Positions 241-61,123 of a stretch of 64,000 nucleotides of DNA are shown here, piece after piece. Within the stretch, counting starts at the first letter, position 1. Every line of letters starts with the position of its first letter. The translations under genes and the position numbers were made by a program. Source of the DNA: Eucommia ulmoides (Eukaryota; Streptophyta; Magnoliopsida; Garryales; Eucommiaceae); the NCBI GenBank assembly GCA_016647705.1, contig CM028333.1:28060743-28124742 (forward strand), in the 5' to 3' direction. The notes under the pieces are model-generated. The model was not told where the DNA came from. It worked only from the letters and a program-made list of their open reading frames with translations, and did not search any database.

Positions 241-1822
241 TTGGAGGATTTTGTGGATTTGATAAAAAAATAGCCATTACTAGCTGTTTTTTTGTTGAAA
301 TCTGAGAGATATTTTAGGGATTTAATAATATTATAGATATATGGTTGTTATTTTGATATCCCTAAAATATGGTACATATATTTTAAGTATTTCTCAAATT
401 TCATTCTTTATATCCTATCGATTTGAGAATATGAAATTATTTGAGGGACTACATTAAATGATTTAAAATCTATAATTAAGTGAATTAAACCAGGATTAAG
501 TTATATCAATATATAGGGTCTATATGAGCAATTAAATATCATGACATGAAAACTAGCCGTTGGAGGGTCTGTTTCAAATCATTATTTATATACCTGTGTT
601 TTTCACTTATGGGTGATTCCAATCAATCATTCTTTTAAAAGTTATTCAGTTTCTGAGCTTTTTGAGAGTCATTATTCTGAAAATATACTGAGAGTTTACT
701 GTGAGATTATTCTTGAGGAAAATTGTTGAAAGTTTTGTGATCACCGATCTAAAGTTTCATTGCGATTCAGTTTTCATTCATTCAGTAGTATCTAGGTGAG
801 ATCGTTTCAAGTTTTTGCTTTTAATTGTTATTTGATATTATTATTTATTGCTTAGAGTTATGATCTTTGTAAAATCATTTTCCGAACGTCAAATTACTTG
901 AAAATATTTTAAAACGATTTTTTGTAAAAATCTGATTACGTGTTAAATTGTGTGTTACTCACTTATCTTATAATCAAATTTTGAAATTCTCATTTTATTA
1001 CTATCACTATTATTTATCAGGATATTAATCAAGTTTAAATTAATCTGAGGTGGTAGAAGTTCTGAGTGGAAAAAAACTTATCAATTTATTGTAATTGGTG
1101 AATTGTATGCGGATTAGATATTATTTGGAATATCTAATCAGGGGTAACTGAGTTTCAATCTCGTCCAATAAAGAGATTGAGGTTTGATATTTTCCTAAGG
1201 TATAAAAAGATTAGGTTGCTCTTTTCTCGTGAAAAGAGATAATCGTAATTCTTCCTGATTAGAATTGAAATTGAGTAAATTTGTAACGGCTTCATCCTTA
1301 CCAGTGAAAAATGATACTTGGAGTGATTTTGATGAGGTTTAATTCTTAAGCCTAAGGTATAAAAAAAATTAGGTTGTGATTCTCTTGTAATAGAAATAGG
1401 TTAATCTTTAGCCTGTGAAAAAAATAGGGGTTCTTCCTTAACCTTAAAAAATGGAATTGTAAAGATGATTCTGAGCTTGTGAAAATAATCATTTTGTAAG
1501 AGTTTGGTTCCTACCTGATTAAAGGAGTCATAGTGGTTTAGTGGGTGCGAATCTCCGTGGAGGTCGGAGGACTAGATTAACCAAGAGTAGCTTGGTGAAC
1601 CAGCATATATCGTGGTGTTCTGCTTTGTTACTTTATTTATTTTCAATTGTTTAGGTGTGCACCTAGTTTAAATAACACATATCCACTACTATAAAAGATA
1701 ATTATTAATTTATGATAAAATTAATTATTTGATTTTTCAAATGTTATAAGTTGATAATTTGTTTTAATTTTTTTATATCTACCCAATTCACCCCCCCTCT
1801 TGGGTAGATCACTGGACCAACA
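1..1822 (+). mobile_element. Family A copia-type LTR, 3' part (5' end outside window)
   Basis: A long terminal repeat whose 3' end reads CCCTCTTGGGTAGATCAC followed by CTGGACCAACA. The same body and end occur at 5131-6401 and 53029-55058 in this orientation and at 9567-11785 inverted. Shared landmarks are the block GAGGTGGTAGAAG near 1047, TCTCCGTGGAGGTCGG near 1553 and a purine-rich stretch with several 'AGCCTAAGGT' repeats. At the inverted copy the LTR end abuts a tRNA-Met-type primer-binding site, which is why I call the family an LTR. No primer-binding site follows 1822, so this is a 3' LTR or a solo LTR. Its start lies before the window. Confidence 0.7.
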
Positions 1823-4956: not shown

Positions 4957-6401
4957 TGTTGGTCCAAAGATCTACCCAAGAAGGGGTGAATTGGGTAGTT
5001 ACAAAATTTAAACAATTAATTACTTTAAACACCTAATATTAAATAATCAATTTTCCTAAATTAATTATTAACTTAGTCACGCAGCGGATATGTGTTTAAT
5101 ACTAAGTGCACACCCAAACACAATATAAGAGTAATCATTCTGATATTATTTTGAGAGATCAAATTGTGAGATTAATTATTGAGGAGTTCTTGAGTTAAAG
5201 TGCTGATTCTGTAAGTGTCACCGAGTTGAGCTGTCTAGCGTTCTAATCTATAATTCTTCGATGTTATCCGGGTGAGATCTTTCCAAGCTATTAATCTTTA
5301 CTGCATATTTATTTTTCTATATTTACTTGGTTGATAAGATCTTGATAAAATCATTTTCGTAACTTTAAATCGCATAAAAATATTTTAAAACGATTTTTGG
5401 TGAAAATCTTATTACATACTTATTTGTGTGCTATTCATATTTATCATAATCATATTTTTATATTTTCTTGGTAAAAGTGTTCCAAGCATATTCTTAATTG
5501 AGTCTATTGCTATCATTGCTTGCTTGGTTAATTAATTGTATGAGAAATCGTTTTTGAACTTTAAAAGTATAAAAATTCTTTTAAAACGATTTGTGAAATA
5601 ATTCGATTACGCTCTCAATTTTGTGCTACCCACATTATTTTTGTAATCTAATTTTTGTTTCCTCACTTAATTCTATCACTAGTAATTATCGGGACATTAA
5701 TTGAGTTTAAGTTGATTTGAGGTGGTAGAAGCTTTGAGTGGGTAGAACTTATCAATTTCTTGTAATTAGAGTGTTGTGTGTGGATTAGGTACTATTGGGA
5801 GTATCTAATCAGAGGTAGCTTGGTTTCAATATCTTCTGATAAAGAGATTGAGATGTTAATTCTTCCTTGATTGAATTTGTGAGTGATTTGTAAAAGTTTC
5901 ATCTTTACCTGGGAAAATGATAGTTTGAGTGTTTTTGTGAGGTTTTGATTCTTTAGCCTAAGGTAAAAAAAAGGTTATTCTTGAGCCTGTAAAAAGTAGA
6001 GGTTATTCTTGAGCTTAGAAAAAAAGAAGAGATTATTCCTGAGCTTGGGAAAAAGAATTTGTAAAGGTTGATTTTGAGCCTGTGAAAAGAATCATTGTGT
6101 AAAGGTTTAGTTCCTACCTGTTTAAAAGAATCTTGGTGAATAGTGGGTGCGAATCTTCGTGGGGCTCCGAGGATTGGATTAGTCAAGAGTAACTTGGTGT
6201 GTACTGCATTATTTATTTCCTTTATTTTATCTTGTATTGTTTGGGTGTGCACCTAGAGCTTATTACACTTATCCGCTGCTATAAAGATAATAATTAATTT
6301 TAGGATAAAATTAACTATTTTATTATTGAAGTGTTATTATTCTTATAATTTTTTAATATTACCCAATTCACCCCCCTCTTGGGTAGCTCACTAGGCCAAC
6401 A
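4957..6401. mobile_element. Inverted LTR-A junction (about 170-bp terminal inverted repeats)
   Basis: The first ~170 bases (TGTTGGTCCAAAGATCTACC...) match the 3' end of LTR A on the minus strand and parallel 9567-9740 base for base with few differences. From about 5131 the sequence switches to the 3' part of LTR A on the plus strand and runs to its end CTAGGCCAACA at 6401. The unit therefore has long terminal inverted repeats and two outward-facing LTR 3' ends. Its flanks differ (GGTAT left, CATTT right), so the unit did not insert by itself. Confidence 0.7.
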
Positions 6402-8082
6402 CATTTAGAATATCTAACAAGATTCCTGGTTTCAGAAAAGAATTTATGAAATCTCTTTTGTTTAAGGATTTTTTGAAACCTAATTTCAGTTTTATCAAAG
6501 ATATCTCATGAAGTTCCCAAAAGCATTTTTAAATTATTCTCACCACCTGTGAATTTGAAAATTATCGAATATAAATCCAATATCTTGGATTTCAATTCAA
6601 TGTTTTCAGATTCGAATTTCATCACTTGCTTATTAAGTATGTTAATTGTACTTTGTAGGGCGTTAATTTGAGAACACTGATGTTTATTATACTTTGTAGG
6701 GCGTTAATTTGAGAACACTAATTTTTATAATCATGCATTAGTTCTTGATAAATATAAAATAAATCATCAAAATATAAAGGACAAGAACTAGAACATTTCG
6801 TTACCTCATCTCCAGTGGCCATCAAAGCAAGCATAGATGAATTGTCACTACCCGATTTTTCTTCTTTTCTTTTCTCTTCTTCTTTTTTTCTTTCTTTGGT
6901 TTGGGACAATCAGATTGGACGTGTCCGTTCTTGTGACAATAGAATCATTCCACAATACTCATGTTGAAATTTATCTTTCCCTGGAATGTTCATCGAGTCA
7001 TTTTTTTGAAATTTTTCGTGAGAAGCGTCACATCCTTTTTTTGCTCTCTGTCAATACTGATATCATCACTATCATCCTCTTCCTTATTTTTTTGAACTTT
7101 CAATGCCAATGACGTTTTTTATATATATTTTCTACTTTGTCCTCATATCCTCGCATAGTCGTCTCATGTGTCATTAGATTTCCAATGAGCTCATCAATAG
7201 TGTAGACTGTGAGATCTTTAGTTTTCTCTATCACAGTTACTTTCGGTTTCCAGACTTTAGTCAATGATCTCAGAATTTTTCGTACTTTATCCTCCATAGT
7301 ATAAGGTTTTCTAAGTTAACCGAGGTTGTTGCAGATATTATTGAATCTTGTGTACATTTCGGAATTGATCATGTTTCACCCATTCTGAATAGTTCGAATT
7401 GTCGAACTAAGGCATTGATCTTGGATTGTTTCCCCTGATTTGTCCCTTCGTGTGTAATTTGCAATGTATTCCATATTTCTTTTGTCGATCCACAACCTGA
7501 AACCCTGGTATATTCATTTGCATCTAAAGCAAAAAAAATTAGAATATTAATAGCTTGAGAATTAATAGAAAGTTTTTGTTTATCAGAGGTTATCAACTAC
7601 TCTTTTTTCCTAGTAACTCCATTCTCCTTACGAACGAATGGATCGTCCTCAATAGCGACCCACACATCATAATTGGTGGCTTGAAGAAAAGCAATCATTA
7701 TTTCCTTCCAGAATGAATAGTTATCACCTACAAAACAAAGGTGGACGGTTGGTAGCGCGGGAAAAACACGCCGCTACTTACATTCGCAAGTATACGAGGT
7801 CTAAGTTTTAGTATAGTGTGATCGTTAAGATCAAGTTATCATATCCACAAGGATTGTTGTCGTTACTATCGAATACCGCGTTTGTCGTGACCTAATTTTA
7901 TCTAGGCGAAAAACAAATGTATTTAATTAATTAAACTAATACTAATATATCCTAAATTAACTACACTATTATGTTAATATGTTTTAGGGTGAAGAATTGC
8001 ATAGGGATTAACGTGTTTACGAATCCGTGTTTGATTCCGATTTACTCACGTTTACGTTGTTCGACCTATTTGACAAACTCGG

Positions 8083-8480
8083 TACGTAAACTCCACCGCC
8101 ACCTCTTCCGAGTGTAAGACGGGAGAATACATGACTTCGAGTCAACGAAGAAGTCCCCCTCAACGTCTTAACGACCCTAGGTCACGTGATTCTCGCCCAG
8201 CGTCATTGATTGAGCACAATCCAACTCTTTCCCGGGTTATTGAATCGTCACGTTGTATTTACCCTATTGATAATCTCCGTTCTAAAACTCCCTCGCCACC
8301 TCTTCCGAGTGTAAAACGAGGAATATAATGCAACTTCGAGCCAACGAAGAGGTCTCCCTCAACATCTTAACGACCCTAGGTAGCGTGTGTCTAGCCCCAC
8401 GTCATCAATTGTCCACGATTCAAATCCCAACCGGGTTATAGAAGCATGACATTTGTTTACCCTATTCCGAATTCGGGGTT
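8083..8480. repeat. About 200-bp tandem duplication inside LTR B
   Basis: CGCCACCTCTTCCGAGTGTA occurs at about 8098 and again at about 8295. Each copy is followed by the same order of motifs: CTTCGAG.CAACGAAGA, CCCTCAAC, CGACCCTAGGT, then a 'GGGTTAT' block. The same duplication is present in the left palindrome arm near 23500-23780. Confidence 0.8.
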
Positions 8481-8940
8481 TGTCAAAATCCTGTATTCTC
8501 CATTTATCAATCCAAGCATAATAAACAAATAAAACGATAAATACAATCAAACTACGAAGAACAATCACAAACGAAACACCGAAATCACCCAAACAACGTA
8601 TTTATAAATTATAGGTTAATCCCTACTACAATCCATATTTAACTCAGGGCCATAGCCGCATATACAAGAAAATAACGAGCTAAACATGCTCACATACTCC
8701 TAAGATAAATAAATAAGGAAAAACGATCGAAGAACTTAGCCTCATCCGAAGATAAACCGCTAAGAACGCTCAACGATCGATTCGCCGTCTTCTCCACTTC
8801 GGGATGTGAGCTCCACCACTAAAATCCCTAACCCTTGGCTTAACTATAGACTAAAGGGATCAAAAATGCAAGAGAGTGGAGAGATATCCGGCTAAAGAGG
8901 GAGGAGATGGGATATTTATAGTATCCTAAAAATATCTAAA

Positions 8941-9240
8941 GGCTGTGCAGGGCAAATCCGCCTAGGCAGTGGAAATTGCGCCTAGGCGGAGTTAGGTAGA
9001 TTAAGTTTGATCGCCTGGGCGGTGAAGTAGGCGGTGGACTGGAGAACATTCTGTTGAAATTCCGCCTAAGCGAAGAAAACTTTGCCTAGGCGAGCGGCTG
9101 TCAGTAGCCCTTCTTTGTCCTCTGCTGGATTTCCGCCTAAGCGGTAGAATTTTCGCTCCGGTGGTCTTCCGTCAGTAACATTTTTCTCTTCTTTGCATTT
9201 TCACCACTTAAGCAGTGGTCTGGACGCTTAAGCGGTGGGC
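8941..9240. repeat. Cluster of CCGCCTAGGCGG-type palindromes in LTR B (U3)
   Basis: GC-rich variants of the 10-12 base palindrome CGCCTAGGCG, such as CCGCCTAAGCG and ACGCTTAAGCGG, occur about ten times in 300 bases in an otherwise AT-rich window. The same cluster is in both palindrome arms (22640-22910 and 24765-25050), upstream of the TATA box. Confidence 0.85.
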
Positions 9241-9552
9241 CTGTCTCATCTTTTAGCCTTCGAGCTTGTTTATCCACCGTAACTTCGAACCGCTTTGGTT
9301 CGATCTCATCGTTTTAGCTCCAGTTTTCTATCTTTTTGACCCACACACCTGAGTTATACAAAAAGTATGAAAACTAATTAAAACATAATAAAAATAACTA
9401 TAAACATATTCGAAGACTAACCAATTCAGATTAGAAATAGATAGGTTTTTCACACCTATCAACGGTGCATAGACTGTCCCTCGCCAGAGTGCCTATGGGG
9501 TGCTCCATGTGATATTTCTTAGCTAGGATTTCAAGCAAAACGAGCTAAATTA

Positions 9553-22016: not shown

Positions 22017-22949
22017 TCTATATAATAAATCAGAACGGGTACATTCACGGCCGTCGGATTAGAGACAAAACTCTTGACATTTTAAGGCCGTATGATCTTT
22101 TCATTTTTATTTTTTTTTTTAAAATTAGGGCCATAAAAGGAAACTGGGTTTGTTGAAATGAAAATAATTGTATATCATTAATTGATAGGATTTGTCACCT
22201 ATAACTAATCATCTTAATTCCTAATCGTGTATCACTTTTATGGAAACAAATGGCTAATCAATTCCTAATCCTTAATTGCCTCTCAATTTTATGGAAACAA
22301 CGACGCCTAATTCCCGTAATCCTCTCACTCTTTTTCTCTCCCTAATTGTAAAAACATAACACCAAGGTTTCTCTCTAAACAATTGCATCTCTCTCAATCT
22401 TAATGCCTTCTCTCTCAGCCTATGATAGGTGTGAAAAACCTATCTATTTCCAATCCTAATTGGTTAGTTTTCGAATATGTTTATAGTTATTTTTATTATG
22501 TTTTAATTAGTTTTCATACTTTTTGTATAACTCAGGTGTGTGGGTCAAAAGATAGGAAACTGGAGCTAAAATGATGAGATCGAACCAAAGCGGTTCGAAT
22601 TTACGGTGGATAAACAAGCTCGGAGGCTAAAAGATTAAACAGGCCCACCGCTTAGGCGTCCAGATCACCGCCTAAGCGGTGAAGATACAAAGAAGAGCAA
22701 AATGTTACTGACGGACGACCGCCTAGGCGAATATTCTATCGCCTAGGCAGAAATCCAACAGAGGACACAGATGGGCTATTGACAGCCGCTCGCCTAGGCG
22801 AAAATCCAACAGAATGTTCTCCAAGTCCACCACCTACTTCACCGCCCAGGCGATCAGACTTAACCGATCTAACTCCGCTTAGGCGAAAATTCTACCGCCT
22901 AGATGGATTTGCCCTGCACAGCCTTTAGATATTTTGAGGATATTTTTGC

Positions 22950-22957
22950 TATAAATA
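22950..22957 (+). promoter_or_regulatory. TATA box of left palindrome arm
   Basis: TATAAATA lies about 527 bases into the LTR and points toward the palindrome centre. The matching position of the solo LTR carries the same box. Confidence 0.55.
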
Positions 22958-24715
22958 TCCCATCTCCTCCCCCTTTGGCCAGATCTCTCTCATCTCTCTT
23001 GCATTTTTTATCCCCTTAGGCTATAGTTAAGCCCAGGGTTAGGAATTTTAGTGGTGGAGCTTGCATCCCGAAGTGGAGAAGACGGCGAATCGATCGTTGA
23101 GCATTCTTAGCGGTTTATCTTCAGACGAGGCTAAGTTCTTCGATCGTTTTTCCTTATTTCTTTATCTTAGGAGCATGTGAGCATATTTAGCTCATTATTT
23201 CATTGTATATGCGGCTATGGCCCTGAGTTAAATATGGATTGTAGTAGGGATTAACCTATAATTTATAAATACGTTGTTTGGATGATTTCGGTGTTTTGTT
23301 TGTGATTGTTCGTCGTAGTTTGATTGTATTTATCGTATTGTTTGTTTATTATGCTTGGATTGATAAATGGAGAATCCGGGGTTTTGACAAAACCCCGGAT
23401 TCGAAATAGGGTAAACAAACGCCACGATTCTATAAGCCGGTCGGGGTTTGAATCGTGGACAATCGATGACGTAGGGCAAGACACACGCTACCTAGGGTCG
23501 TCAAGACGTTGAGGGGGACCTCTTCGTTGACTCGAAGTGGCGTTATATCCCTCGTTTTATACTCGGAAGAGGTGGCGAGGGAGTTTTAGAACGGAGATTG
23601 TCGATAGGGTAAATACAACGCGACGATCCAATAACCCGGAAGGGAGTTGGATTGTGTGCAATCAATGACGCTGGGCAAGACTCACATGACCTAAGGTCAT
23701 TAAGATGTTGAGGGGGACTTCTTCGTTGACTCGAAGTCATGTATTCTCTCGTCTTACACTCGGAAGAGGTGGCGGCGGAGTTTACGTACCGAGGTTGTCA
23801 AATAGGTCGAACAACGTAAACGCGAGTAAATCGAAATCGAACACGTATTTGTAAACACGTTAATCCCTATACAATTCTTCACCCTAAAACATATTAACAT
23901 AATAATGTAGTTAATTTAGGATATATTAGTATTAGTTTAATTAATTAAATACATTTGTTTTTCGCCTAGATAAAATTAGGTCACGACAAACGCGGTATTC
24001 GATAGTAACGACAACAATCCCTGTAGATCCCTCCCGGGTTATTGGATCGTCGCGTTGTATTTACCCTATCGACAATCTCCGTTCTAAAACTCCCTCGCCA
24101 CCTCTTCCGAGTGTAAGACGAGGGATATAACACCACTTCGAGTCAACGAAGAGGTCCCCCTCAACGTCTTGACGACCCTAGGTAGCGTGTGTCTTGCCCT
24201 ACGTCATCGATTGTCCACGATTCAAACCCCGACCGGGTTATAGAATCGTGGCGTTTGTTTACCCTATTCAGAATCCGAGGTTTTGTCAAAACCCCGTATT
24301 CTCCATTTATCAATCCAAGCATAATAAACAAACAATACGATAAATACAATCAAACTACGACGAACAATCACAAACAAAACACCGAAATCATCCAAACAAC
24401 GTATTTATAAATTATAGGTTAATCCCTACTACAATCCATATTTAACTCAGGGACATAGCCGCATATACAATGAAATAATGAGCTAAATATGCTCACATGC
24501 TCCTAAGATAAAGAAATAAGGAAAAACGATCAAAGAACTTAGCCTCGTCTGAAGATAAACCGCTAAGAACGCTCAACGATCGATTCGCCGTCTTCTCCAC
24601 TTCGGGATGCAAGCTCCACCACTAAAATTCCTAACCCTGGGCTTAACTATAGCCTAAGGGGCTCAAAAATGCAAGAGAGCTGAGAGAGATCCGGCCAAAG
24701 GGGGAGGAGAGGGGA

Positions 24716-24723
24716 TATTTATA
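24716..24723 (-). promoter_or_regulatory. TATA box of right palindrome arm
   Basis: TATAAATA on the minus strand mirrors the box at 22950 and also points inward, so the two LTR promoters are convergent. Confidence 0.55.
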
Positions 24724-25275
24724 GCAAAAATATCCTCAAAATATCTAAAGGCTGTGCAGGGCAAATCCACCTAGGCAGTAGAATTTCCGCCTAGGCAGAG
24801 TTAGATCGGTTAAGTCTGATCGCCTGGGCGGTGAAGTAGGTAGTGGACTTGGAGAACATTCTGTTGGATTTTCGCCTAGGCATTAGAATTTCCGCCTAGG
24901 CGAGCGCTGTCAGTAGCCCATCTGTGTCCTCTGTTGGATTTCCACCTAGGCGATAGAATATTCGCCTAGGCGGTCGTCCGTCAGTAACATTTTGCTCTTC
25001 TCTGTATTTTCACCGCTTAGGCGGTGATCTGGACGCCTAAGCGGTGGGCATGTTTCATCTTTTAGCCTCCGAGCTTTTTTATCCACCGTAACTTCGAATC
25101 GCTTTGGTTCGATCTCATCATTTTAGCTCCAGTTTCTTATCTTTTTGACCCATACACCTGAGTTATACAAAAAATATGAAAACTAATTAAAACATAATAA
25201 AAATAACTATAAACATATTCGAAAACTAACCAATTAGGATTGGAAATAGATAGGTTTTTCACACCTATCAGCCTA

Positions 25276-43600: not shown

Positions 43601-46600
43601 GATATACTCCCTGCATTAAACAACTTCCCTGCTTTTTGACCGACACTGTCATTCAAGGGAGAAGCATTCGATGCAGCCGTCGCCGTCGTCGTCCACCCTC
43701 GTCATCGTCGCCATCATCGTCCACCCTCGTCATCATCACCGTCATCGTCCACACTCAAGGTCGTCTTCATTGTCATCCATTCTCGAGGTTGTCGCCATCG
43801 TCATCCACACTTTCTCACCGTCAACGACGTGGCATGATCGAAATTTGCGTAGCAATCTCTCTATGCATGCTCGGTGAGTTCTCCATCCCGTTAGATGTGG
43901 TAGATCGGAGAGTATAATCTCGCTGTCCAACTTGTCCGACACGTTTACCTTCGCGTGTCCGACACGGTTACCTTCGCGTGTCCGCGCTTTGTCGAAATTA
44001 ATAAAAATAAATGAAAATCTCAGACACGTTCCGACAAGCGTCAGACACCGACACTCAGCCTCCCGCGGAGTGTCCGTGCTTCCTAGATAGGAAGAGACAT
44101 GCTAGGAGTACGTAGAGGAAGGGGGACCAAAATATAGAAAAAGTTGGTGGTCGAATGAGAGGTTCAAAAAGTTGTTTCTGATAAGAAAATATCTTATAAG
44201 GAATGGCAAAATAGTGGGAGGTTAGAGAAGTACAATTGGGCAAAAAAATAAGGAAAAAATTATTAAAGAATCTTCGTTTAGGGCTTACGATAATGTGTAT
44301 AAGAAATTAGAAAAAAAAAGATAAAGAGAGGGGTATATACTAGATTGTTAAGAGACATCTAAGGAAGACTAGATATCGAGAAAGTGTTAAATGCATCAAA
44401 GATGTGAACCAAAAGGCTTTAGTAAAAGAAGAGATTATAGAACGATGGAGGCATTACTTTTATGGTTTATTCAAATAGAGTAGTGTTGGGGAATCAAGTT
44501 TATGACTGTTTGTTTTGCCTCCAGGTAGGAATCATAGGTCCCATAAGAGAAATAGGACTTCGGAAGTTAGAACAACAATAAGGGAGATGAGTAATGGTCC
44601 CAATGGAAAAGTAGTAGGGCCAGATGAAATCCCTACATAGGTTCAGAAGAGTTTGGGAGATCTTGGGATAAATTGGTTGACTAGGCTATTCAGTGACATA
44701 TCAAAAATAAGGAAACATTGGATGATTGAAGGAGAAGTATATTAGTGCCTATTTACAAAAATAAAGAAGATGTCCAAAGTTGTATGAAGGTATAGCTACA
44801 AGAGTTTGAACCATAGGAAATAATACTTGTGCCTTTCCAATTAATTAGTCTTGAATCAAAAATCATCTTTAAGTCCTTAGATCTTTGTTTTAATAATGAG
44901 TAAACTCATGAAACATATTCAAGATGGAGTATCATGGAATATGTTGTTTGTAGATGACATAGTACTACTTAATAAAACTAGAAAAGGTCTTAACATTCTA
45001 GAAAAGGTCATTGAAGGGAAGTCTTAGTCTAGGGGCTTAAAGATCAATAGAACTAAGACGGAAATACATGCATTACAATTTTGACAATACTCAGAGAGAT
45101 GATGGTAGGTAAAGAATAGAGATCTACATAGGTAAAGATTAGTTTTTTTACTTCATGGGAATGGAGAAATCGAGGACACAACACATAGAGTCAAGGTAGA
45201 ATGGTTAAAGTGGTGAAGTACAGTTGTGGTAATTGTGATCATAGGATACCACTGAAATTCAAAAGAAAGTTTCACAAGACTACAATAAAACTGAATTTTT
45301 TATGATTTAGAATGTTGGCCGGTAAACAAGAATTATATTCAGAAAGTAGGTGTGGCCAAGATAAAGATGTTCAGGTGGATGAGTGGTAAGACATTAATGG
45401 ATAAAGTTCGAAATGGGGTTATTAGTGAGAGGTTAGGAATAGCACCAATTGAAGATAAGATGAGAGAAAATTGTTCACAATGGTTTGGACATGTGCATAG
45501 AAGATCTAAGGACGCACTACTACGAACATGTGATTTAATTTAAGTGGAATGTCCTCCAAGGGTGAGAGGTAAACCTAAGAAAACGAGACAATTAGGAACG
45601 ATCTAATTGTTTTGAAATTAATTGAAAGCATGACCCTTGAACAATCTGTATGGCACGAAAAGGATTCATGTAGCTGACCCTACTTAGGTGGAGCAAAGGC
45701 TTTGTTGTTATTGTTATTGTTGTATTCACTTATTTTTGTTCCCCAAAAACTGGTAATCAAAATGGAAATTGGGAAACCAAAAAAACTGTTATGCTTTGTT
45801 ACCAGATTTTTAGAACAAATTATTGGGAAAAGCATACTTGTTCCTAGAATTTTGACTTTGTTCCAAGTTCACAAGAAACATAATCAAAAATGTCGGAACA
45901 AAACACAAAAAACGCCACCTTAGGTGGTGTTTGTTAGTGTTTCTTGTTCTGTTTTTTATTTCTTGAATTTGTTCCCAGTTGGGAACAGAAATTGGGGAAA
46001 TAACAGTTTCTTTTTGTACCCATATTTTTATAACAATTTTCTGGGAACAGTTGAAATTTGTTCCCACATTTCGATTTTTATTACAATTTTTTTGGAACAG
46101 AAACAGAAATTTGAGAACAGAAACACTAACAAATGCTACGTTAACTAACCAGGCAGTGGATCTGTCCCTAGAAAACTGGGAATAAAAACAGAAATATGGG
46201 GGGACAAAAGAACTGTTTTTGCCCTATTCCTAGATTTTCACAACAATTTTTTTGGAATAGAACATAATTATTCCCAGATTTTTGTTTCTCCTCAAAGTTC
46301 ATGAAAACGAAACATAAATCTGGGAACAAAAACACAAAACAAACACCGTGCTCGTGTTTACATTCCTAAATTTCTGTTTCTATTCCCAGAAAAAAGAAAC
46401 AAAAATCTGAAAGAAAAAAAAAAAAAAAAAAAACTGCTTCCCAGAAACTCTTTTTTAAAATGATTTTGTTCTTACCCAAGCAACAAGATTCTGTTCTCCT
46501 CCAGTTTTGGAGTTCTCAATAGCTTTCCTCCCAGTAATGATCTCGAGAAGAACCACCCCAAAGCTATAGACATCAGATTTGAGCGTCAATTGACCAGTCA

Positions 46601-49600
46601 TTGCATATTCCGGCGCGCAATATCCGTATGTACCCATAACCCTCGTGGATACATGCGTATTATCTCCGACCGGACCGAGCTTAGCCAACCCGAAATCCGA
46701 CAGCTTGGGATGATAAACCTCGTCAAGCAAAATGTTAGAGCATTTTAGATCACGGAATATTACAGGAGGGGTTGCTTTGTCGTGTAAATACTCCAATCCT
46801 TTTGCAGCTCCAGCTGCAATTTTCATTCTTGTGTTCCAATCGAGACGTTTCTTACCAGGTGTTGGATCTGCAGCTCCATTATCAGTTTAAAATTGCTCAA
46901 TGGAATCGAGGACCCCGATTTCTGTTTTTGTTCCCAATTCCAGGGACAAACAAAATTATGGGAACTGAAAAAAATTACTTCTTTTCGGTCTTAGTTTTTT
47001 TAAATAAATTGCAGTGAATGAAAAATAATAATTCTCGGGTTTATGTTCTGGTCCTAAGTTTTCTGAGAGCAGAAACAGAATTCTGGGATAGAAATACTTA
47101 GCCTAAGGTCACGTGCTTTACTGTTTCTTATCCCAAAATTTTGTTTATGTTCCAAGATTTTTAGAAAAATAAATCTCTTTACGTTTTGCTCCCATATTTT
47201 TAGAATAATTTGGTGAGAACAGAACAAAAACGTTCCCACATTATTACAAAGAAAAATCAATTTCTGCTCAGATTTTGAGAACATAGTAAAATTATTCCCA
47301 CATTTTTTAGAAAAGGAAATCTCTCTCCCATTTTTCAAAAAAAAAAAAAAGACGCTTTTTATATTCTGCCCAGAATTTTAGAACAAAATTATGAGAAGAG
47401 AATAAAATTATTTGCAGAATTTCTTTTTTTTAAAAAAGAAAAAAGATATAGAAATCTATTCGTCTCCCAAATTTTTAGAAAAAGAGATATGTTTATGTTC
47501 TGCTCCTAGATTTTTTAACAAATTTATCAGAATAGAACAAAAAAGTTACCAGATTTTCAGAAAAATAAATTTGTTTACATTATGCTCCATAGTCCATAGT
47601 TTTTAGAATAAATTTTCGAGAACAGAACATACTTGTTCTAGATTTTTAGAAAAATGAAATATGTATGTTTTCCACTCCCAGATTTTTTAGAACATTTGTT
47701 GCTTCCAAGTTCTAGTCAAAGAAAAATTGTTTACACTTTCTCCCATATTCTTAAACAAAACTTATAATAACAGAATAAAGTTGTTCCCAAATTTTTGTTT
47801 TAGTCCCATTGTTTTCAGAAAACAGAAACAAAAATCTACAGAATAGAAACACTAAAATGAACGCCGCCTTTAAAAAAAATTAAAAAAAATAAAAAAAAAC
47901 AAAAAAAAAAACCAGAAATTACCGTGAAGATGGTCCTCTAAAGATCCAAGGGGCATGTACTCGTAGACAAGAAGTCTTTGATCCCCATCAGCACAATAAC
48001 CAATCAGATTGACGAGGTTGGGGTGGTGTAATAAACTTAACATTAGCACTTCCACCAGAAATTCTCTGTTCCCTTGTAACCCATTTCGATCCAGTTGCTT
48101 GATGGCAACCATCTACCATAAAACAAAATTCCAAAAAGGTGTTAAAATTCTACTAACTTCTACTAATATTTTTAGGATATTACACGAGAAGACCATTATG
48201 AAAATAACCCCATTTTCTGTTCTCAAGTTTCTATTTCTATCCCGAGAAATTTGTTTTGAAAATCTGGGAACAGGCTAGAAACAGAGTATTTTTTTGGATA
48301 TTAGACAAGAAGATCGTTCTGAAAGACTATTCAGACCTGTTGAATTGAAACTATATTAGTCGAGTCAGGAAGGGTAGGGGCAGAAATAGCCATTTGAACA
48401 TGAATCCAACGTTTGTTTAGTGTTTTTGTTCTCAGATTTTTATGTTTTCCAGGTTTTTTGGATACGGAAACAAAAACACTAGTCCACGTTTGCCAAGTGT
48501 TTTCGTTCATGAATTCTGTTACTATTCCCAGAAAATTGAGAACAGAAACCGGAATATGTGAGTAAAAAATGTTCTTGTTCTGCTCTCAGATTTTAAAAAC
48601 AAATTTTCGGCCAAAATAACAAAATCGTTCATAGATTTTCATTTCTGTTCCAAGTTTTCTATGAACAAAAACAAAAATCTAAGAGCATAGGCACTAAAGG
48701 TGGTGTTTGGTTAGTGTTTCTGCATTTTTGTTTCTGCTTCTAATAAATTGGTATAGAAATTTTGTTTCTGTTCTAGAGTATTCTGGGAATAGAAACATGT
48801 TTGGTAATGACTATTGTCTTAAAATTATTTCATTTAATTTATGAGAATAGAAATAAGAAACATGTTTAGTTGCAATATTTATTTATTTTTCTTTAAATGT
48901 ACGGTGTCGGCGGGATGGTGATGGTGGCTAGCGAATAGTGGTGGCCGGTAAGGGGGTGGTGGGTATAGTTTTATACGCGTGAATAAAAATCAACATTTTT
49001 TTCTCAAATTCTTAAGGAGTTCAGGATTTACTCCCAAAATTTTGGGAACAGAAACATGTTTACTAGATGCGTTTTTGTACATTAATCTCAAAATTTTGGA
49101 AGCGAGAATAGAAATCAAGGAATAGAAACAGTGACCAAACGGGGCCATGTGGTGTTTGGTTAGTGTTTCTACTTCCAATAAACTGGGATGAAAATTTGTT
49201 AGGATCCCACATCGACTAAGTATGGGATTGGTTGGTAGGTTATAAACCCCTAGGCACCCTCCCCTTGTAAGCCGGTTTTCAAGGGTGAGTTCTACCTAGT
49301 GGGTTTGTAACCATTGGTTCGTACCAAGTATGGGCTTGGTTCGTATCAATTGGTATCAGAGCATTGTCCTGGGCCCCACGCCAACGTGCCACGTGGCAGG
49401 CTGACCAGTGCGCTGGGGTAAAGAGGCCGACGTGGACGTCGGCTGTGGAAGCGTGGGGAAATGTTAGGATCCCACATCGACTAAGTATGGGATTGGTTGG
49501 TGGGTTATAAACCCCTAGGCACCCTTCCCTTGTAAGCTGGTTTTCAAGGGTGAGTTCTACCTAGTGAATTTGTAACCATTGGTTCGTACCAAGTATGGGC

Positions 49601-53028: not shown

Positions 53029-55058
53029 TGATGAAAATGCGATGACAAATTATGAATGGATGCTAAATGATGATGAAGAATTAAGAGTTTGAAGAAATTA
53101 GAGAAAACAACTCAGGTGAATTTCAACTCTTAATATCCCAATTAGGAAAACACACGGCACAAAAGTTTTTATTGTTTATGTGGGTTTTAATAAGATGAAA
53201 TTATTTGCTCTTATGTGCGATTGCAAAATAAATATTTATAATGGATTAAAATTGAATTTAAATATTTAGTAGAGCATATTTAGAAAAGAAAATGGTTAAA
53301 ATGGTGAAAACGTAAGTAAGAATGAGTTAAAAACGAGTTTAGAAAAGAGATCCAGTATACATAAATCGACTGGTAAGTCGATCGGATAAAGCAGACAGAA
53401 CTCTTTGTATCTCTAAGTCGACAGGTAAGTCGACCGGTGAAGAGAATATGAACTCTCTATATCTCTAAGTCGACAGGTAGGTCGACCAGTGAATATAAAT
53501 CAAATTCTCTGTATCTCTAAGTCCACAGATAGGTCGACCGATGGACGCAGAATCTTTGGCTTGGCTATATCCTGAATCGAATGGTCGACTGGCCGATCGA
53601 CTGAGGTCACAGTTTTAGGATATTGAGGATTCCGAATTCATATATAAAAGTAGCCATTTTGTTGGTATTTGTGAGAGATTTCAGAGATTTTATGATATTC
53701 AAGATATGCTACACCTATTATTTAAATCCTATTGATTTGGTTCATTAAGTTTGAATATTTTTCAATTTGGTACATAAAATTGTTTCTATTCTATTTAATT
53801 GAGATTAAGAAATATTTGGGGGACTTAATTGAAAGATTTAAAAATTATAATTAAGTGAATTGAACCAAAATGAAGTCATAATGATATAAGGGGTCTAAGA
53901 AAACATTCAAATGTCATGACACATGGGAACTAGCCGTTAGAGAGCTAATTTATTTTCCATATATATAGACCTGCGTTTTTCATATCATGCATATAGATTA
54001 AGAGAGCTTAAAGAATTGAGATCATATTGAGTTGTTCTAAGAGATATCATACTAAGATTTTGTGAGAGTTATTCTAAGAGACGATCTTAAGAATCATTAA
54101 CTATTAATCTTTGCTGCTACCGGATCTGAAGTAACATCGCTCTATTTATTTTTTCTGTGGATTCTGGGTGAGATCTTTCCAATTACTTTCTATATTGCAT
54201 TGCTTGTTTAATTTCTAGAATTTGATCTTTAGAAATTATTTCTGATTTTTATTGAAGAAAATATTTTATAAACAATTTCTTGAATTTGATTTCATGCTCA
54301 ATTATTTGCTATCCATCTTTTGTTTAAAATCAGATTTTCAATCTCATACTTTTCTATCACTAGATTTGAGATATTAATCGAGTTTTAATTTATCTAGGGT
54401 GATAGAAGCTCCGAGTGAGATAATCTGCTTATCAAATTGTATTGGTGATTAGTGTGACAGATTAAATACTGTTGGGGGTATTTAATAAAAGGGTAGCCGA
54501 TTTCAGTCTCTTCCTGTAAAGAGATTGAGGTAGTAATTCTTCTTGGATAGAATTATTTTGAGTGAATTTTGTAACGGTTCAATCTTTACCGGGTAAAAGG
54601 ATATTTGAAATGTTGGTGAGATTTTGATTCTTTTGCCTTTGTGTTAAAAAGAATTAGGTTATTCTTTAACTTGTAAAAAGTAGAGGTTCTTCCTTAGCCT
54701 GTGAATTTTTTTTTGTAAAGGTTGATTCTGAACCTGTAAAATAATCGTTGTGAGAGTTTGGTTCCTACCTTTGAAGGGATCTTGAGTATTAGTGGGTGCG
54801 ACTCTCCGTGGGGCTCGGGGGACTGGATTAGCCAAGAGTACCTTGTTTAACTAGTATAAATATCTAGTGTGCTGCAATATTTAATTTATTTATTTTTGCT
54901 ATTTGGTGTGCACCTAGATGATTATATAATTCCTCTGTATTATAAAGGTAATAATTAATTTAAGATTAAAATTAATTATTTAATTTTTTGAAGTATTCTT
55001 CTGATAATTTTTTAAATACCCAATTCATCCTCTTCTTAAGTATTCTACTGGGCCAACA
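53029..55058 (+). mobile_element. Family A LTR (solo or 3')
   Basis: It ends CTGGGCCAACA and carries family-A landmarks in order: ACTAGCCGTTAG (53930), GGGTGAGATCTTTCC (54166), AGGGTGATAGAAGCTCCGAG (54398), TCTCCGTGGGGCTCGG (54800). The start near 53029 is estimated by similarity to the upstream part of the LTR at 9567-11785. No primer-binding site follows and the flanks show no duplication. Confidence 0.65.
53350..53610. repeat. About 58-bp tandem repeat inside LTR A
   Basis: About four units, each with AAGTCGACAGGTAAGTCGAC followed by an AACTCTCTATATCTCT-type spacer. This is the LTR-A short-repeat block in its most regular form in the window. Confidence 0.8.
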
Positions 55059-56611: not shown

Positions 56612-59600
56612 AACATCGCTAATTGTTGATTTCTATTATTATTTTTCTTTTTTCACCTGTATATATTCATCTGTTTTCTTTCTTGATTACTTATATGATA
56701 TCAACCTAATCTCGTTTCTTTCTTCTTAATATTTTTTTCCCAATTTTTGAACTGAGAAATCGATGCTCCTTCTCTCTGAAACCCTAGTCGCCACTGTAAC
56801 TAAGAGCTGTCGCTATGCTGTTTAATCGATTCAAGCTATCCAATCGATTCAAGCTTCACCCAGATTCGAGCTTTGTCGTACTGTCATAACTTAGATCTAG
56901 TGCAATCCAATCGATTAAAGCTTTGCCCAGATCCGAAGCGATCATCGTTGCCGTCGAACTTTGTCGTGGTTCGTTTACTGATCTAAGATTTCAACGAGGC
57001 AATCTGAGATTTCTTCTCAAGTTGTCGCCATCTCATTCCAATCAATATCTTCTTCTTATTTTTCGTTTCCCTTGTTAGCATCATTTCTGTAAAAATATTT
57101 GAACCCATATTAGCCTCTATGGTTGGGTGCAAGTCCTCTACAGCCATTTGGACTCTCATTCAAGATCATTTCAATTAGAAATTTGTTGCCAACTCCTTCC
57201 TTTATAGGAAACGACTCACCATCCTCGAGTGTAGCACCCGATCTATACCTCAATATCTACAAGAAGCAAAATATATTTATGATGCCTTTGCTATTATAGG
57301 TGAGCTTGTCTCTAACAAAGATCTAGTTAATGTCATTCAACGGCCTTGATTATGAGTTTGACATGTTAATCACCGCAATTAAAAAATTTGACTTACTACC
57401 ACTATTCTTTAATCTACCTACTTGACTACTCAACTGTGAGACCCGACACAAAACTGTTTCTTGTCCTTACCTTCTGTTTTTCTTGCAACTCAGACTCATT
57501 CTAATGTCACTCCACGAAATAATTTACATCATAAAGGTCACAAAAAAAAACAATGGTCGTCCATCCACAAACTGTGTTAATCCCTCAGGTATTCCTTACC
57601 CCAGTCCAAAAACCATGTCTCATTGTCAATTGTGCTTTGGGATTGGTCATTCTGCCTGCAATTGCTACTGCCTCTCTTCGTTTGTACAACCATTCGTTCC
57701 TCCATCGCTGAACTCTGCCTTTACAGGCCTAAAAATTACTCTACCTCAGGTGCATCAAAATAAACAAACTTTACAGTGGTCACTCAATGATACCAGTTGG
57801 TATCCTGATACTGGTGCATCTACCCATATAACGGGTAACCCTACTCTTCTGCAGCAATACATACCATACAATGGGCCTGATTTTGTTCGACGTGGCAATG
57901 GTGATCACCTACCAATAACTTATACGAGTAAAATAACACTACCACTTGACTCATCATCCTTTTTTCTCAATAATGTCTATGTCGTTCCTTTAATGCGTAA
58001 AAATTTACTCTCCATCACTTAATGTTGCACTAATAATCATGTTCTTTGTGCTTTTGATACTAATCACTTCTATATCTTTAACTCACATTTGGTTCTCTCC
58101 TCTATCAAGGCCTATATAAGTATGGTCTCTACAAGTTACCTGTCATCTCTCCCCGTTTACACGTTTTATCTACCTCGATCACCTTGTCCACGCTTTGGCA
58201 CAGTCAACTAGGTCATCCATCTGCTAAAGTCATGTCTTATTTGGGTTCCAATAAATTATTATCTACTCCTTTTAAATTTAATTTTTTCTTCTACTCTGGG
58301 TATACTTTAGGTAACTCCACACATCTCCCATTCCTGAGCTCTCATGAAATAAAAATCTCTTTTCCTTTTACTTTAATTCACTATGATGTATAGCAAACTC
58401 ATGTGCTTTCTGTCTCTGGTTATAAATATTATGTGTTTGTTCAATGACGACTACACTCGTTTTAGTTGGCTATACTTCATGAAACAAAAATTTGAAGTGC
58501 TCCAACATTTCAAAGACTTTTTAGCCTATGTCCAAACTCAATTTTCTACACACGTCTAGCAATGTCAGAGTGATGGTGGTGGGGAATATGATAGTGGTCC
58601 GTTCAAATCACTTTGTTCTTCTCTAGCTATCCATCATCGGCTCTCTTGTCCTCACACTCCCGAACAAAATTGACTTACTGAACGAAAATACCACCACATT
58701 GCTGACATGGACTATACCCTCTTTCTCACAACTCAAGTTCATCTCCATCACGGGCCCGAAGCAATCTCTACTACTATTCACCTAATCAATATTTTCCCCT
58801 ATTTTAAACCCAAGTAGTCATCACCATTCTTCCATCTTTATGGCCATATTCCTTCCTACTTTGAGTTACGTGTGTTTGGTTGTACATGTTATTCGCATTT
58901 AAGTGCTTATTTAATTAATAAACATTTGCCAAGAACTGTTGAATGTGTGTTTTTAGGCTACAACTTGCATCATAAAGGCTATCATTGCCTAGACCGCACA
59001 ATTGGTATAGTGTACATTTCCCGACATGGTCGTTTTATGAACAACACTTACCATTTGCATCTAACACTAGAAGCATTCCACCAGACTCATAATCATGGAC
59101 CTTTGTTCTTCTATTACCACCAACTCATGTTGAACCTCTACAATCGGCTACACAAAATAGTGTTCCGCCTCCTCTTCATCAACCATTTCTATATCATTAT
59201 CATCGTCGACAAAATCAACCCTTATAATTCAATCCTTTTGCTACTTCTACCGCTAAGGCTCTTCTATCTCCAGTTTCTTCACACTATTCGATGGTAACAC
59301 GTCATCGAGATGGCACACTCCATCTTCTTGTTCGAATAGATAACGCAATCCGATATTCTCTCCCAGAGGTTCTACTTGTTCAGCTTCCATCATCCATTAC
59401 CTGCTATACTCAGGTTATTCGTGTCCCTGAATGGAGTCAATCTATGACTAGTAAATTTAACTTATTGAAGACCAAAAGTTAGGTTTTTGTCTCTTCTTCC
59501 CCACATCAACATGTTGTGGGTTGTAAGTAGGTCTTCAAACTCAATCGCAAAGTAGACAGTACCATTGAACCATACAAATTTCGCCTACTTTCCAAAGGCT

Positions 59601-61123
59601 TCCATCAACAAGAGGGTATTGATTTTGATGAGATATTTAGTCCTGTAATCAAACCTACCAATATTCATACCATGCTCAGCCTTATCATATCCTTTGGTTG
59701 GACATTGCACCAACTTGACGTGAAGAATGTTTTTTTTTTATGGTGTTTTGGATGAAACTGTCTGTATGTCACAACTACCTGGTTTCATAGATCTGGATAA
59801 TCCTTATCATGTCTGTCGTCTACAAAAGACCATATGTGGCCTCAAATAAGTGTCTCAAGCTTGGTTCCAACGTCTCAGCACATTCCTTTTACAGTATGGT
59901 TTCACCTAGAGTCAAGTTGATCATTAATTGTTTATCTATTGCTCTAACTTTGTTGTTACTACTTCTTTTATATGTCGATGACATTATACTAACTGGGAAT
60001 CAGTTGTCTCTAGTTTTATCATTCATCACCACTCTTGGCAAGAAGTTTGAGCTTAGCAACCTTGGTTCCCTATCTTACTTTCTAAGCCTTGAAACAACTT
60101 CCTCTCCTGCTGGCTTACATCTTTCTCAGCTCAAGTATACTATCGATCTTATTGTACGTTTCTTGATGACAAACTACAAACCTTGAAACACCCTTGTATG
60201 TGTTAAAACTCAATTATCCTCTCAAAGTAGAGATCTCTTGTCAGATACCACTGAGTATCGCCAATTGGTTGGCTCCTTACAGTATCTCAGCAAACCACAC
60301 ATTACCTATGTTGTTCATCATGTTGCTCAATTTATAAGCCAACCACCTTAGAGCCTCCAAACGAACCCTTTGGTACCTTAAAGGGACTTTAAACTTTAGC
60401 CTCATTTTCCAGCGTAGTGTTACACCATTAATTCTCCAGGCTTATTTTGATGCTAATTGGGCAGGTTGTCTCGACTCTTGTTGCTTTACCACTGATTTTT
60501 GTGTTTTCTTGGGCTCCAATCTAATCTTTTGGACCGCCAAGAAACAATCTATTATCTCTTGATCAAGCGCCAAAGCTGACTATTGATCCCTTACCCATGT
60601 TTGCGTCGAATCCACATCGGTACTTCATCTGCTCCAGGAGTTGCAAATTCTCATATTCATGTCTATCACCTTACTTTGTGATAATCTCAACACTACATAT
60701 ATGGCCACAAATCTTGTGTTTTGCTCTCGTACTAAGCATATTGGATTGTATTATCACTTTATACCAGAACGTATTCATACTGGCACACACCATGTTCAAT
60801 TTGTCTCTTCTACTAATCAACTCGCCAACATTTTTACCAAGGGACTCAACAAGACACAATTTCATCTTCTACGAACCAAACTCGTCTCTCCAAGTTAGTC
60901 GAGTTTACGAGGAAGTATTAAACCTCTCTTTATTTCATATCAATCACAAATCTATATTATTGTTGTAATCATTTCATATCAACTACAAATCCGTATTTTA
61001 GGTACTTAGGAATCATTTCATATTAGTTAGAAATCTTTATTTTAGGAACAATTACAACATAACTCTTCCATAAATAGGATCATTCTCTATAATAAAACAT
61101 ATGTAAAGTCTTGATTAGTTACA
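56612..61123 (+). mobile_element. Ty1/copia element F
   Basis: A short 5' LTR end (to 56695) is followed by TGATATCAACC, a decayed tRNA-Met-type primer-binding site. The 3' LTR starts near 60916 (TATTAAACC after a purine-rich GAGGAAG) and ends near 61123 (TTGATTAGTTACA, matching TTGATTACTTATA at 56695). The 5' LTR is truncated, abutting the gypsy fragment. Confidence 0.65.
57000..60897 (+). pseudogene. Element F gag-pol remnant (Retrofit/Ale-like copia)
   Basis: Legible parts in order: gag with a knuckle CQLCFGIGHSACNC (57620); protease WYPDTGASTHITGN (57800), with the catalytic Asp in DTGA; VYVVPLMRKNLLSI; pre-integrase TLWHSQLGHPSAKVM (58180); integrase pieces to 58700; FGCTCYSHL (58872); reverse transcriptase LHQLDVKN (59706), QLPGF near 59775, YVDDIILTGN (59971); RNase H terminus RTKHIGLYYHF.PERI and QLANIFTKGL (60730-60850). 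The protease stretch is open for 179 codons, but stops and frameshifts break the rest. Confidence 0.85.

What the first reader, a model, noticed from the sequence alone, without database searches (positions are those of the whole stretch)
22423..25270. Two LTRs inserted as one inverted palindrome with a single 5-bp target duplication
Both outer ends are the same LTR terminus (TGATAGGTG, U3 side), the 3' ends of both LTRs are lost at the centre, and GCCTA flanks the whole 2848-bp unit. Normal integration joins one U3 end and one U5 end. A unit with two U3 ends and a single target duplication suggests integration of an aberrant inverted cDNA (for example from template switching or autointegration), or an LTR pair reshaped by inverted recombination. 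The arms are closer to each other than to the third copy, which favours one template.
Basis: partly seen in the sequence, partly recalled or inferred. Interest (0 to 1): 0.85.

Follow-up and report, generated by a model that had tools for sequence, protein, structure and literature searches.

The report
Retrotransposon inserted by two identical ends
A jumping gene normally enters a chromosome with one copy of each of its two different ends, but here, and at five other places checked in this plant-like genome, it went in with the same end on both sides, apparently because a faulty DNA copy was made back-to-back before insertion.

Summary
The 2848-bp unit has two exact U3 ends, arms of 1606 and 1243 bp joined tail to tail at 24028, and GCCTA on both sides. 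Three paralogous loci in the same genome carry the empty site with one 5-mer, so the unit went in as one piece. The joint occurs once in the genome at up to 3 mismatches. The arms are each other's nearest relatives among 39 LTR copies compared (clade support 1.000).

It is not a one-off. In a C1 sample, 4 of 9 convergent U3 groups within 15 kb carry an exact direct 5-bp duplication (chance about 0.002 each). A sixth unit was confirmed on C2. No two joints are alike. In the four units testable on the tree, the arms form a clade.

In two units the centre contains reverse-copied tRNA-Asp, the minus-strand primer. The genome holds 43 LTR ends fused to tRNA-Asp sequence beyond the primer-binding site. 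These joints were therefore made on reverse-transcription products.

Best reading: plus-strand DNA with a bad U5 end was extended back along another U3-bearing plus strand (misplaced strand transfer), and integrase inserted the two-U3 product. Main rival: two cDNAs integrated by their U3 ends, then end joining.

The parts
22418..22422 (+). left target-site duplication GCCTA
22423..24028 (+). left arm: LTR from its exact U3 end, U5 end missing (93 bp short on the solo LTR)
23646..24027 (+). unpaired centre: part of the left arm with no counterpart in the right arm (382 bp)
   Evidence: (pair I1)
24028..24028 (.). tail-to-tail joint, 1-bp overlap; the 40-mer around it occurs once in the genome at up to 3 mismatches
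24028..25270 (-). right arm: inverted LTR ending in an exact U3 end, about 480 bp short at U5
25271..25275 (+). right target-site duplication GCCTA
7750..9461 (-). solo LTR of the same family, ends TG..CA, flanked by ACGGT at 7745-7749 and 9462-9466; comparison copy

Best explanation
This is one insertion of a cDNA that carried the U3 end of its LTR at both termini. The cDNA arose during reverse transcription. A plus strand whose U5 side was unfinished or spoiled (stopped short, or run on into the tRNA primer) paired by a few bases with another U3-bearing plus strand, probably plus-strand strong-stop DNA, and was extended back to that strand's U3 start, instead of the minus strand doing so in the normal second transfer. 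Integrase then used two U3 ends and made the usual 5-bp duplication. Shown: one insertion event, two exact U3 ends, sister arms, recurrence with different break points, and tRNA-primer copy in the centre of two other units. Inferred: that the joint was made by polymerase strand transfer rather than by end joining, that the second template was strong-stop DNA, and that integrase did the insertion.
For: Empty sites with one 5-mer: window unit, 3 loci; L038, 3 loci (ATGGC, ATGGC, ATGAC); L078, internal region of two related copies; L045, 3 distant repeats with flanks contiguous and no gap at the site, 57-71% identity only. Six units with two U3 ends and direct 5-bp duplications: window GCCTA; L045 GGTAC; L050/L038 ATGAC; L059 CCCAT; L078 GTGTG; L091 GTCAT. 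Arms cluster in 4 of 4 units testable on the tree, support 0.958-1.000, like a normal LTR pair (0.994). L078 and L091 centres hold LTR end, spacer, PBS and tRNA-Asp copy of 36 and 59 nt (PBS included); tRNA-Asp identity by ARAGORN. 43 tRNA-fused LTR ends, reversed-pattern control 0. The shorter arm lies within LTR plus PBS in all six units (L091 was read only at its centre and ends).
Against: The joints, judged by eye, show 0 to about 5 bp of overlap or short filler, and L038 has roughly 10 nt that also occur in the nearby LTR; this suits cellular end joining too. A second-strand route for finishing the right half is assumed, not seen. In L038 the far left LTR differs in its U3 (80% to the reference LTR over 91 bp), while the inverted end matches its own 3' LTR (95.7% over 94 bp): there the two outer U3 ends were not copies of one template. 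Sister status rests on a narrow margin in L059 (91.9 against 91.5%) and L045 (94.3 against 93.6%), and base states shared by the two arms and by no other copy number only 1 and 0 there, against 6 in the window unit and 3 in the normal pair. The window unit itself has no tRNA sequence. 14 of 19 tRNA-fused ends read are not clear U3-U3 joints.
Confidence: 0.66

Rival explanations
1. Two separate cDNAs of one source were integrated together, each by its U3 end, at one target. The two loose, defective U5 ends left in the broken chromosome were then joined by the host.
For: Gives the same final structure and duplication. tRNA-bearing or truncated U5 ends would be unfit for integrase (tRNA-bearing ends; unfitness inferred). 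Short overlaps and filler at joints. Two different U3 types at the ends of L038.
Against: Needs two cDNAs at one site in each case, of the same source in the four units tested. If break points were uniform on a 5.4-kb cDNA, the shorter arm should lie inside the LTR in only about half of units; it does so in 5 of 5 units not chosen for that feature (own estimate, about 0.05, from arm lengths). No back-to-back U3 pair (the mark of a U5-outer unit with intact U3s) within 8 kb in the C1 list, against 8 convergent pairs.
Confidence: 0.27
2. Two unrelated LTR insertions in opposite orientation lost the DNA between them; the matching GCCTA is chance.
For: Both ends are ordinary U3 ends and the terminus is abundant: 3767 places at up to 1 mismatch.
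Against: Empty sites with one 5-mer and no missing target. Arms are nearest relatives of each other. 4 of 9 convergent groups with duplication against 0.002 expected each.
Confidence: 0.02
3. The palindrome is itself a transposable unit (foldback-like element) that multiplies as such.
For: Long inverted repeats with a target duplication look like a foldback element.
Against: The joint is found once at up to 3 mismatches and each of the other five units has a different joint.
Confidence: 0.01
4. Assembly artefact (fold-back read or misjoin).
For: No reads could be examined.
Against: Arms differ at 3% of sites and in length, the flanks are not inverted copies, the edges coincide with U3 ends and a duplication, and paralogues show the empty site.
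Confidence: 0.02

Closest known systems
Solo LTR / complete LTR retrotransposon insertion (same family, window 7750-9461 and L030)
   Same: Same LTR, TG..CA ends, 5-bp duplication
   Different: A normal insertion has one U3 and one U5 end; here both ends are U3 and the U5 sides meet in the middle
2-LTR circle junctions carrying tRNA-primer sequence (HIV-1; PMC5618025, passages read)
   Same: Faulty RNase H action leaves tRNA-primer sequence at the U5 end of the cDNA
   Different: There the junction is U5 to U3 in an unintegrated circle; here U5 to U5 inside an integrated unit flanked by U3 ends
Autointegration inversion products (recalled; Lee and Coffin 1990 seen only as a reference title)
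   Same: Rearranged cDNA with inverted LTR segments
   Different: Those are circles without free ends; these are linear insertions with a duplication
DIRS-type retroelements with inverted terminal repeats (recalled)
   Same: Inverted LTR-like ends
   Different: Recombinase elements without target duplication; here a 5-bp duplication and ordinary LTRs
Foldback / MITE DNA transposons (recalled)
   Same: Long inverted repeats with a target duplication
   Different: Not multiplied as a unit; arms are LTRs, and sister cases carry PBS and tRNA copies from reverse transcription

Membership tests
LTR retrotransposon family (host family of the unit) | LTRs with TG..CA ends and 5-bp target duplication | tested here: met
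   solo LTR 7750-9461; L030 785-6206 with GTCTT on both sides
LTR retrotransposon family (host family of the unit) | tRNA primer-binding site after the 5' LTR and polypurine tract before the 3' LTR | tested here: met
   TGGCGCCGTTGCCGGGGA five bases after the LTR, TTTGGGGGTAT before the 3' LTR in L030; complementary to tRNA-Asp read by ARAGORN
Autonomous LTR retrotransposon | own gag-pol genes | tested here: not met
   internal region about 2 kb with no open frame over 73 aa in the one complete copy looked at, L030: a non-autonomous (LARD-like, recalled term) family; its autonomous partner was not sought
Ordinary LTR or solo-LTR insertion | one U3 and one U5 end | tested here: not met
   both ends U3
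Foldback/MITE transposon | multiple copies of the same inverted-repeat unit | tested here: not met
   joint found once at up to 3 mismatches
DIRS-type element | no target duplication, tyrosine recombinase | tested here: not met
   5-bp duplication present; the unit consists of LTR only
Product of aberrant strand transfer on strong-stop DNA | joint at or near the PBS/tRNA end with short pairing, arms from one template | tested here: inconclusive
   tRNA centre in L078 and L091, sister arms in four units; window joint lies within U5, without tRNA

The most novel reading that the evidence does not exclude
The family has a regular second route of insertion. Plus-strand strong-stop DNAs, often still carrying a copy of the tRNA primer, are joined tail to tail into U3-U3 molecules that integrase accepts as proper substrates. 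In the C1 sample such units are about a fifth of the insertions with more than one terminus (4 beside about 15 same-strand pairs), so by extrapolation from that one stretch there may be on the order of a hundred in the genome.
Probability: 0.5. Interest if true: 0.85.

Novelty: new variant of a known kind. Interest (0 to 1): 0.74.

Why it matters
Integrase is normally thought of as pairing one U3 and one U5 end of one cDNA. Repeated insertions with two U3 ends and clean 5-bp duplications suggest that two U3 ends suffice for concerted insertion in vivo. They also preserve failed reverse-transcription intermediates, including almost whole tRNA-primer copies, as fossils that can be counted and dated. 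Annotation programs that expect direct LTR pairs would probably miss them or call them nested or broken elements (inference). They also create new long inverted repeats, which can feed small-RNA silencing (general knowledge, not tested here).

Tried and rejected
Chance pairing of two insertions: rejected by empty sites. Amplified palindrome: rejected by the unique joint. Convergent groups without duplication in the C1 list, told in full: 5 of 9 failed, namely 1187989/1189876, 1220539/1227866, 12740499/12753289 (flanks are inverted copies, so a larger inverted duplication), 14490322/14493658 and 19768725/19774148 (the last two have polypurine-tract flanks on one side). The L045 flank search gave only distant repeats (67-77%); 5 were compared, and 3 of them hold both flanks contiguous. 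The left-flank search for the window and the L059 flank search did not complete and were not pursued.

Of 43 tRNA-fused ends, 19 plus L078 were read. What follows the tRNA in the 19: inverted LTR in L090, L091, L092, L095 and L098 (68-90% identity; L089 weakly, 66%); same-direction LTR in L087, L093, L094 and L099; a family-internal-like stretch in L084 (73%); no family match in the other 8. So tRNA-fused ends are not all U3-U3 joints. L087 and L093 lie 0.5 kb apart and look like one duplicated stretch. The outer duplication was tested in only one of these, L091, and was met; the first window fetched for its right end (L104) fell short of the end, a second (L105) reached it.

A U5-end listing (100 of 7138 places) showed, by eye, one convergent close pair (C1:27533982/27534198) and no divergent pair within 15 kb; too thin to settle U5-U5 frequency. 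Ten paper searches listed no paper that I recognised as reporting integrated U3-U3 units; I read passages of two papers only, and subscription journals are mostly missing from the library.

Full report
Observation. The unit at 22423-25270 begins and ends with the same LTR terminus and is flanked by GCCTA on both sides. Against the solo LTR at 7750-9461, the left arm runs from the U3 end to 93 bp before the U5 end and the right arm from the U3 end to about 480 bp before it; they meet at 24028 with a one-base overlap. The arms differ at 36 of 1200 sites (K 0.031) and from the solo LTR at K 0.093 and 0.095; polarised by the solo LTR, 16 changes fall on the left arm, 18 on the right, and 2 sites differ in all three copies.

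One event. The right flank matches three other loci of the same 947-Mb genome over its length at 84-88%. In each, left and right flank are contiguous with one copy of the 5-mer: GCCTA in L061 and L062, TCCTA in L063. The unit therefore entered as one piece and made an ordinary 5-bp duplication. The 40-mer across the joint occurs once in the genome at up to 3 mismatches.

Family. Searching the genome with the left arm scored 40 of 8435 candidates; the right arm was the best non-self match (95%), the next 92%. L030 is a complete element (5422 bp; LTRs 1718 bp, 95% alike; internal region 1987 bp; PBS TGGCGCCGTTGCCGGGGA; tract TTTGGGGGTAT; duplication GTCTT) with no open frame over 73 aa inside. 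The U3 terminus occurs 3767 times at up to 1 mismatch; related families may share it.

Recurrence. From 100 listed U3 termini on C1 plus one, nine adjacent convergent pairs lie within 15 kb, against one divergent and 19 same-strand pairs; within 8 kb the counts are 8, 0 and 17. Four of the nine convergent groups have exact direct 5-bp duplications: L045 GGTAC, L050/L038 ATGAC (its duplication lies at the outer terminus 3186176, not the adjacent one), L059 CCCAT and L078 GTGTG. The other five do not. The chance of 4 of 9 at 0.0019 each is about 1.6e-9; for L038 and two failed groups more than one left terminus was tried, which changes this little. L038 and L078 also have empty sites, and L045 has distant ones. 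On the L030 map the break points (longer | shorter arm) are: window 1625 | 1242; L045 about 3580 | 1046; L059 about 3825 | 1696; L038 3' LTR position 1546 | 94; L078 past the 3' LTR end into PBS and tRNA | PBS. No two are alike.

One source per unit. On 39 LTR copies over 1049 columns, the arms of the window unit, L045, L059 and L078 each form a clade (support 1.000, 0.966, 0.958, 0.994), as does the normal LTR pair of L030 (0.994); identities within units are 96.9, 94.3, 91.9 and 92.9-93.9% against 92.8, 93.6, 91.5 and 92.6% to the nearest other copy. Base states shared by the arms and by no other copy: 6, 0, 1 and 4, and 3 for L030, so the case is strong for the window and L078 and thinner for L045 and L059. 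L038 could not be tested this way; its inverted 94-bp end matches its own 3' LTR at 95.7%, while its far left U3 is of another subfamily.

The tRNA clue. In L078 the two LTRs face each other across AGTTT-like spacer, PBS and 36 nt of sequence complementary to tRNA-Asp, of which the first 18 are the element's PBS; ARAGORN reads the matching gene as tRNA-Asp. A pattern for tRNA sequence beyond the PBS fused to the LTR end finds 43 places, reversed-pattern control 0. In 19 of these that were read, tRNA copies run 46-75 of 75 nt; five are followed by inverted LTR at 68-90% identity. One of the five, L091, was tested for two outer U3 ends with a duplication: found, C2:40600187-40603837, 3651 bp, GTCAT on both sides. 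Such ends arise on reverse-transcription products, so these joints were made on cDNA intermediates or their immediate descendants. tRNA-primer sequence at U5 ends from faulty RNase H action is known from HIV-1 2-LTR junctions (PMC5618025, passages).

Mechanism. Common to all six units: the U3 ends are exact, the U5 sides are missing or run on past the LTR, and the shorter arm stays within LTR plus PBS, the extent of plus-strand strong-stop DNA. I infer that a plus strand with a bad U5 side is extended back along a strong-stop-like strand, a misplaced version of the second strand transfer, and that integrase joins the two U3 ends. Joining of two cDNAs after U3-U3 integration would leave the same scar and is the main rival. 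For Rous sarcoma virus it has been proposed that integrase recognises U3 and U5 ends differently (PMC12789967, passages).

Limits. No reads, no relatives. Rates rest on one stretch of one chromosome: 4 U3-U3 units beside roughly 15 same-strand LTR pairs, of which only L030 was tested for a duplication. The absence of a precedent covers only the searches named in Tried and rejected.

Noticed in passing
genome G000, 43 places (19 read: L083-L101): LTR U5 ends of this family fused to reverse-copied tRNA-Asp, up to the whole tRNA; some continue into non-family DNA or same-direction LTRs, so other faulty insertion routes may be fossilised too
   Followed up: partly
L094 (C6:40363479-40363738): U5 - 64 nt of tRNA copy - U3 in the same direction, like a 2-LTR junction with retained primer, but in the genome
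   Followed up: no
C1:27533982-27534228: two U5 ends facing each other about 0.2 kb apart, with a U3 end listed at 27535906; possible further U3-U3 unit, duplication not tested
   Followed up: no
C1:12740499-12753310 (L051, L052): convergent U3 ends whose flanks are inverted copies of each other: a larger inverted duplication or an assembly fold-back
   Followed up: no
L050/L038 (C1:3186176-3191328): element whose 5' and 3' LTRs belong to different subfamilies: chimera between co-packaged or recombining elements
   Followed up: partly
window 57426-60186: copia-type pol fragments (Pol_BBD, SH3_retrovirus, RVT_2)
   Followed up: no
window 46455-46886 (-): protein-kinase exon (PF00069)
   Followed up: no
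window 435-1822, 4957-6401, 53810-54988: second repeat family with TGTTGG..CCAACA-like ends in several copies
   Followed up: no
window 8088-8466 and 23418-23737: a 199-bp direct duplication inside the LTR, also seen in L030
   Followed up: no
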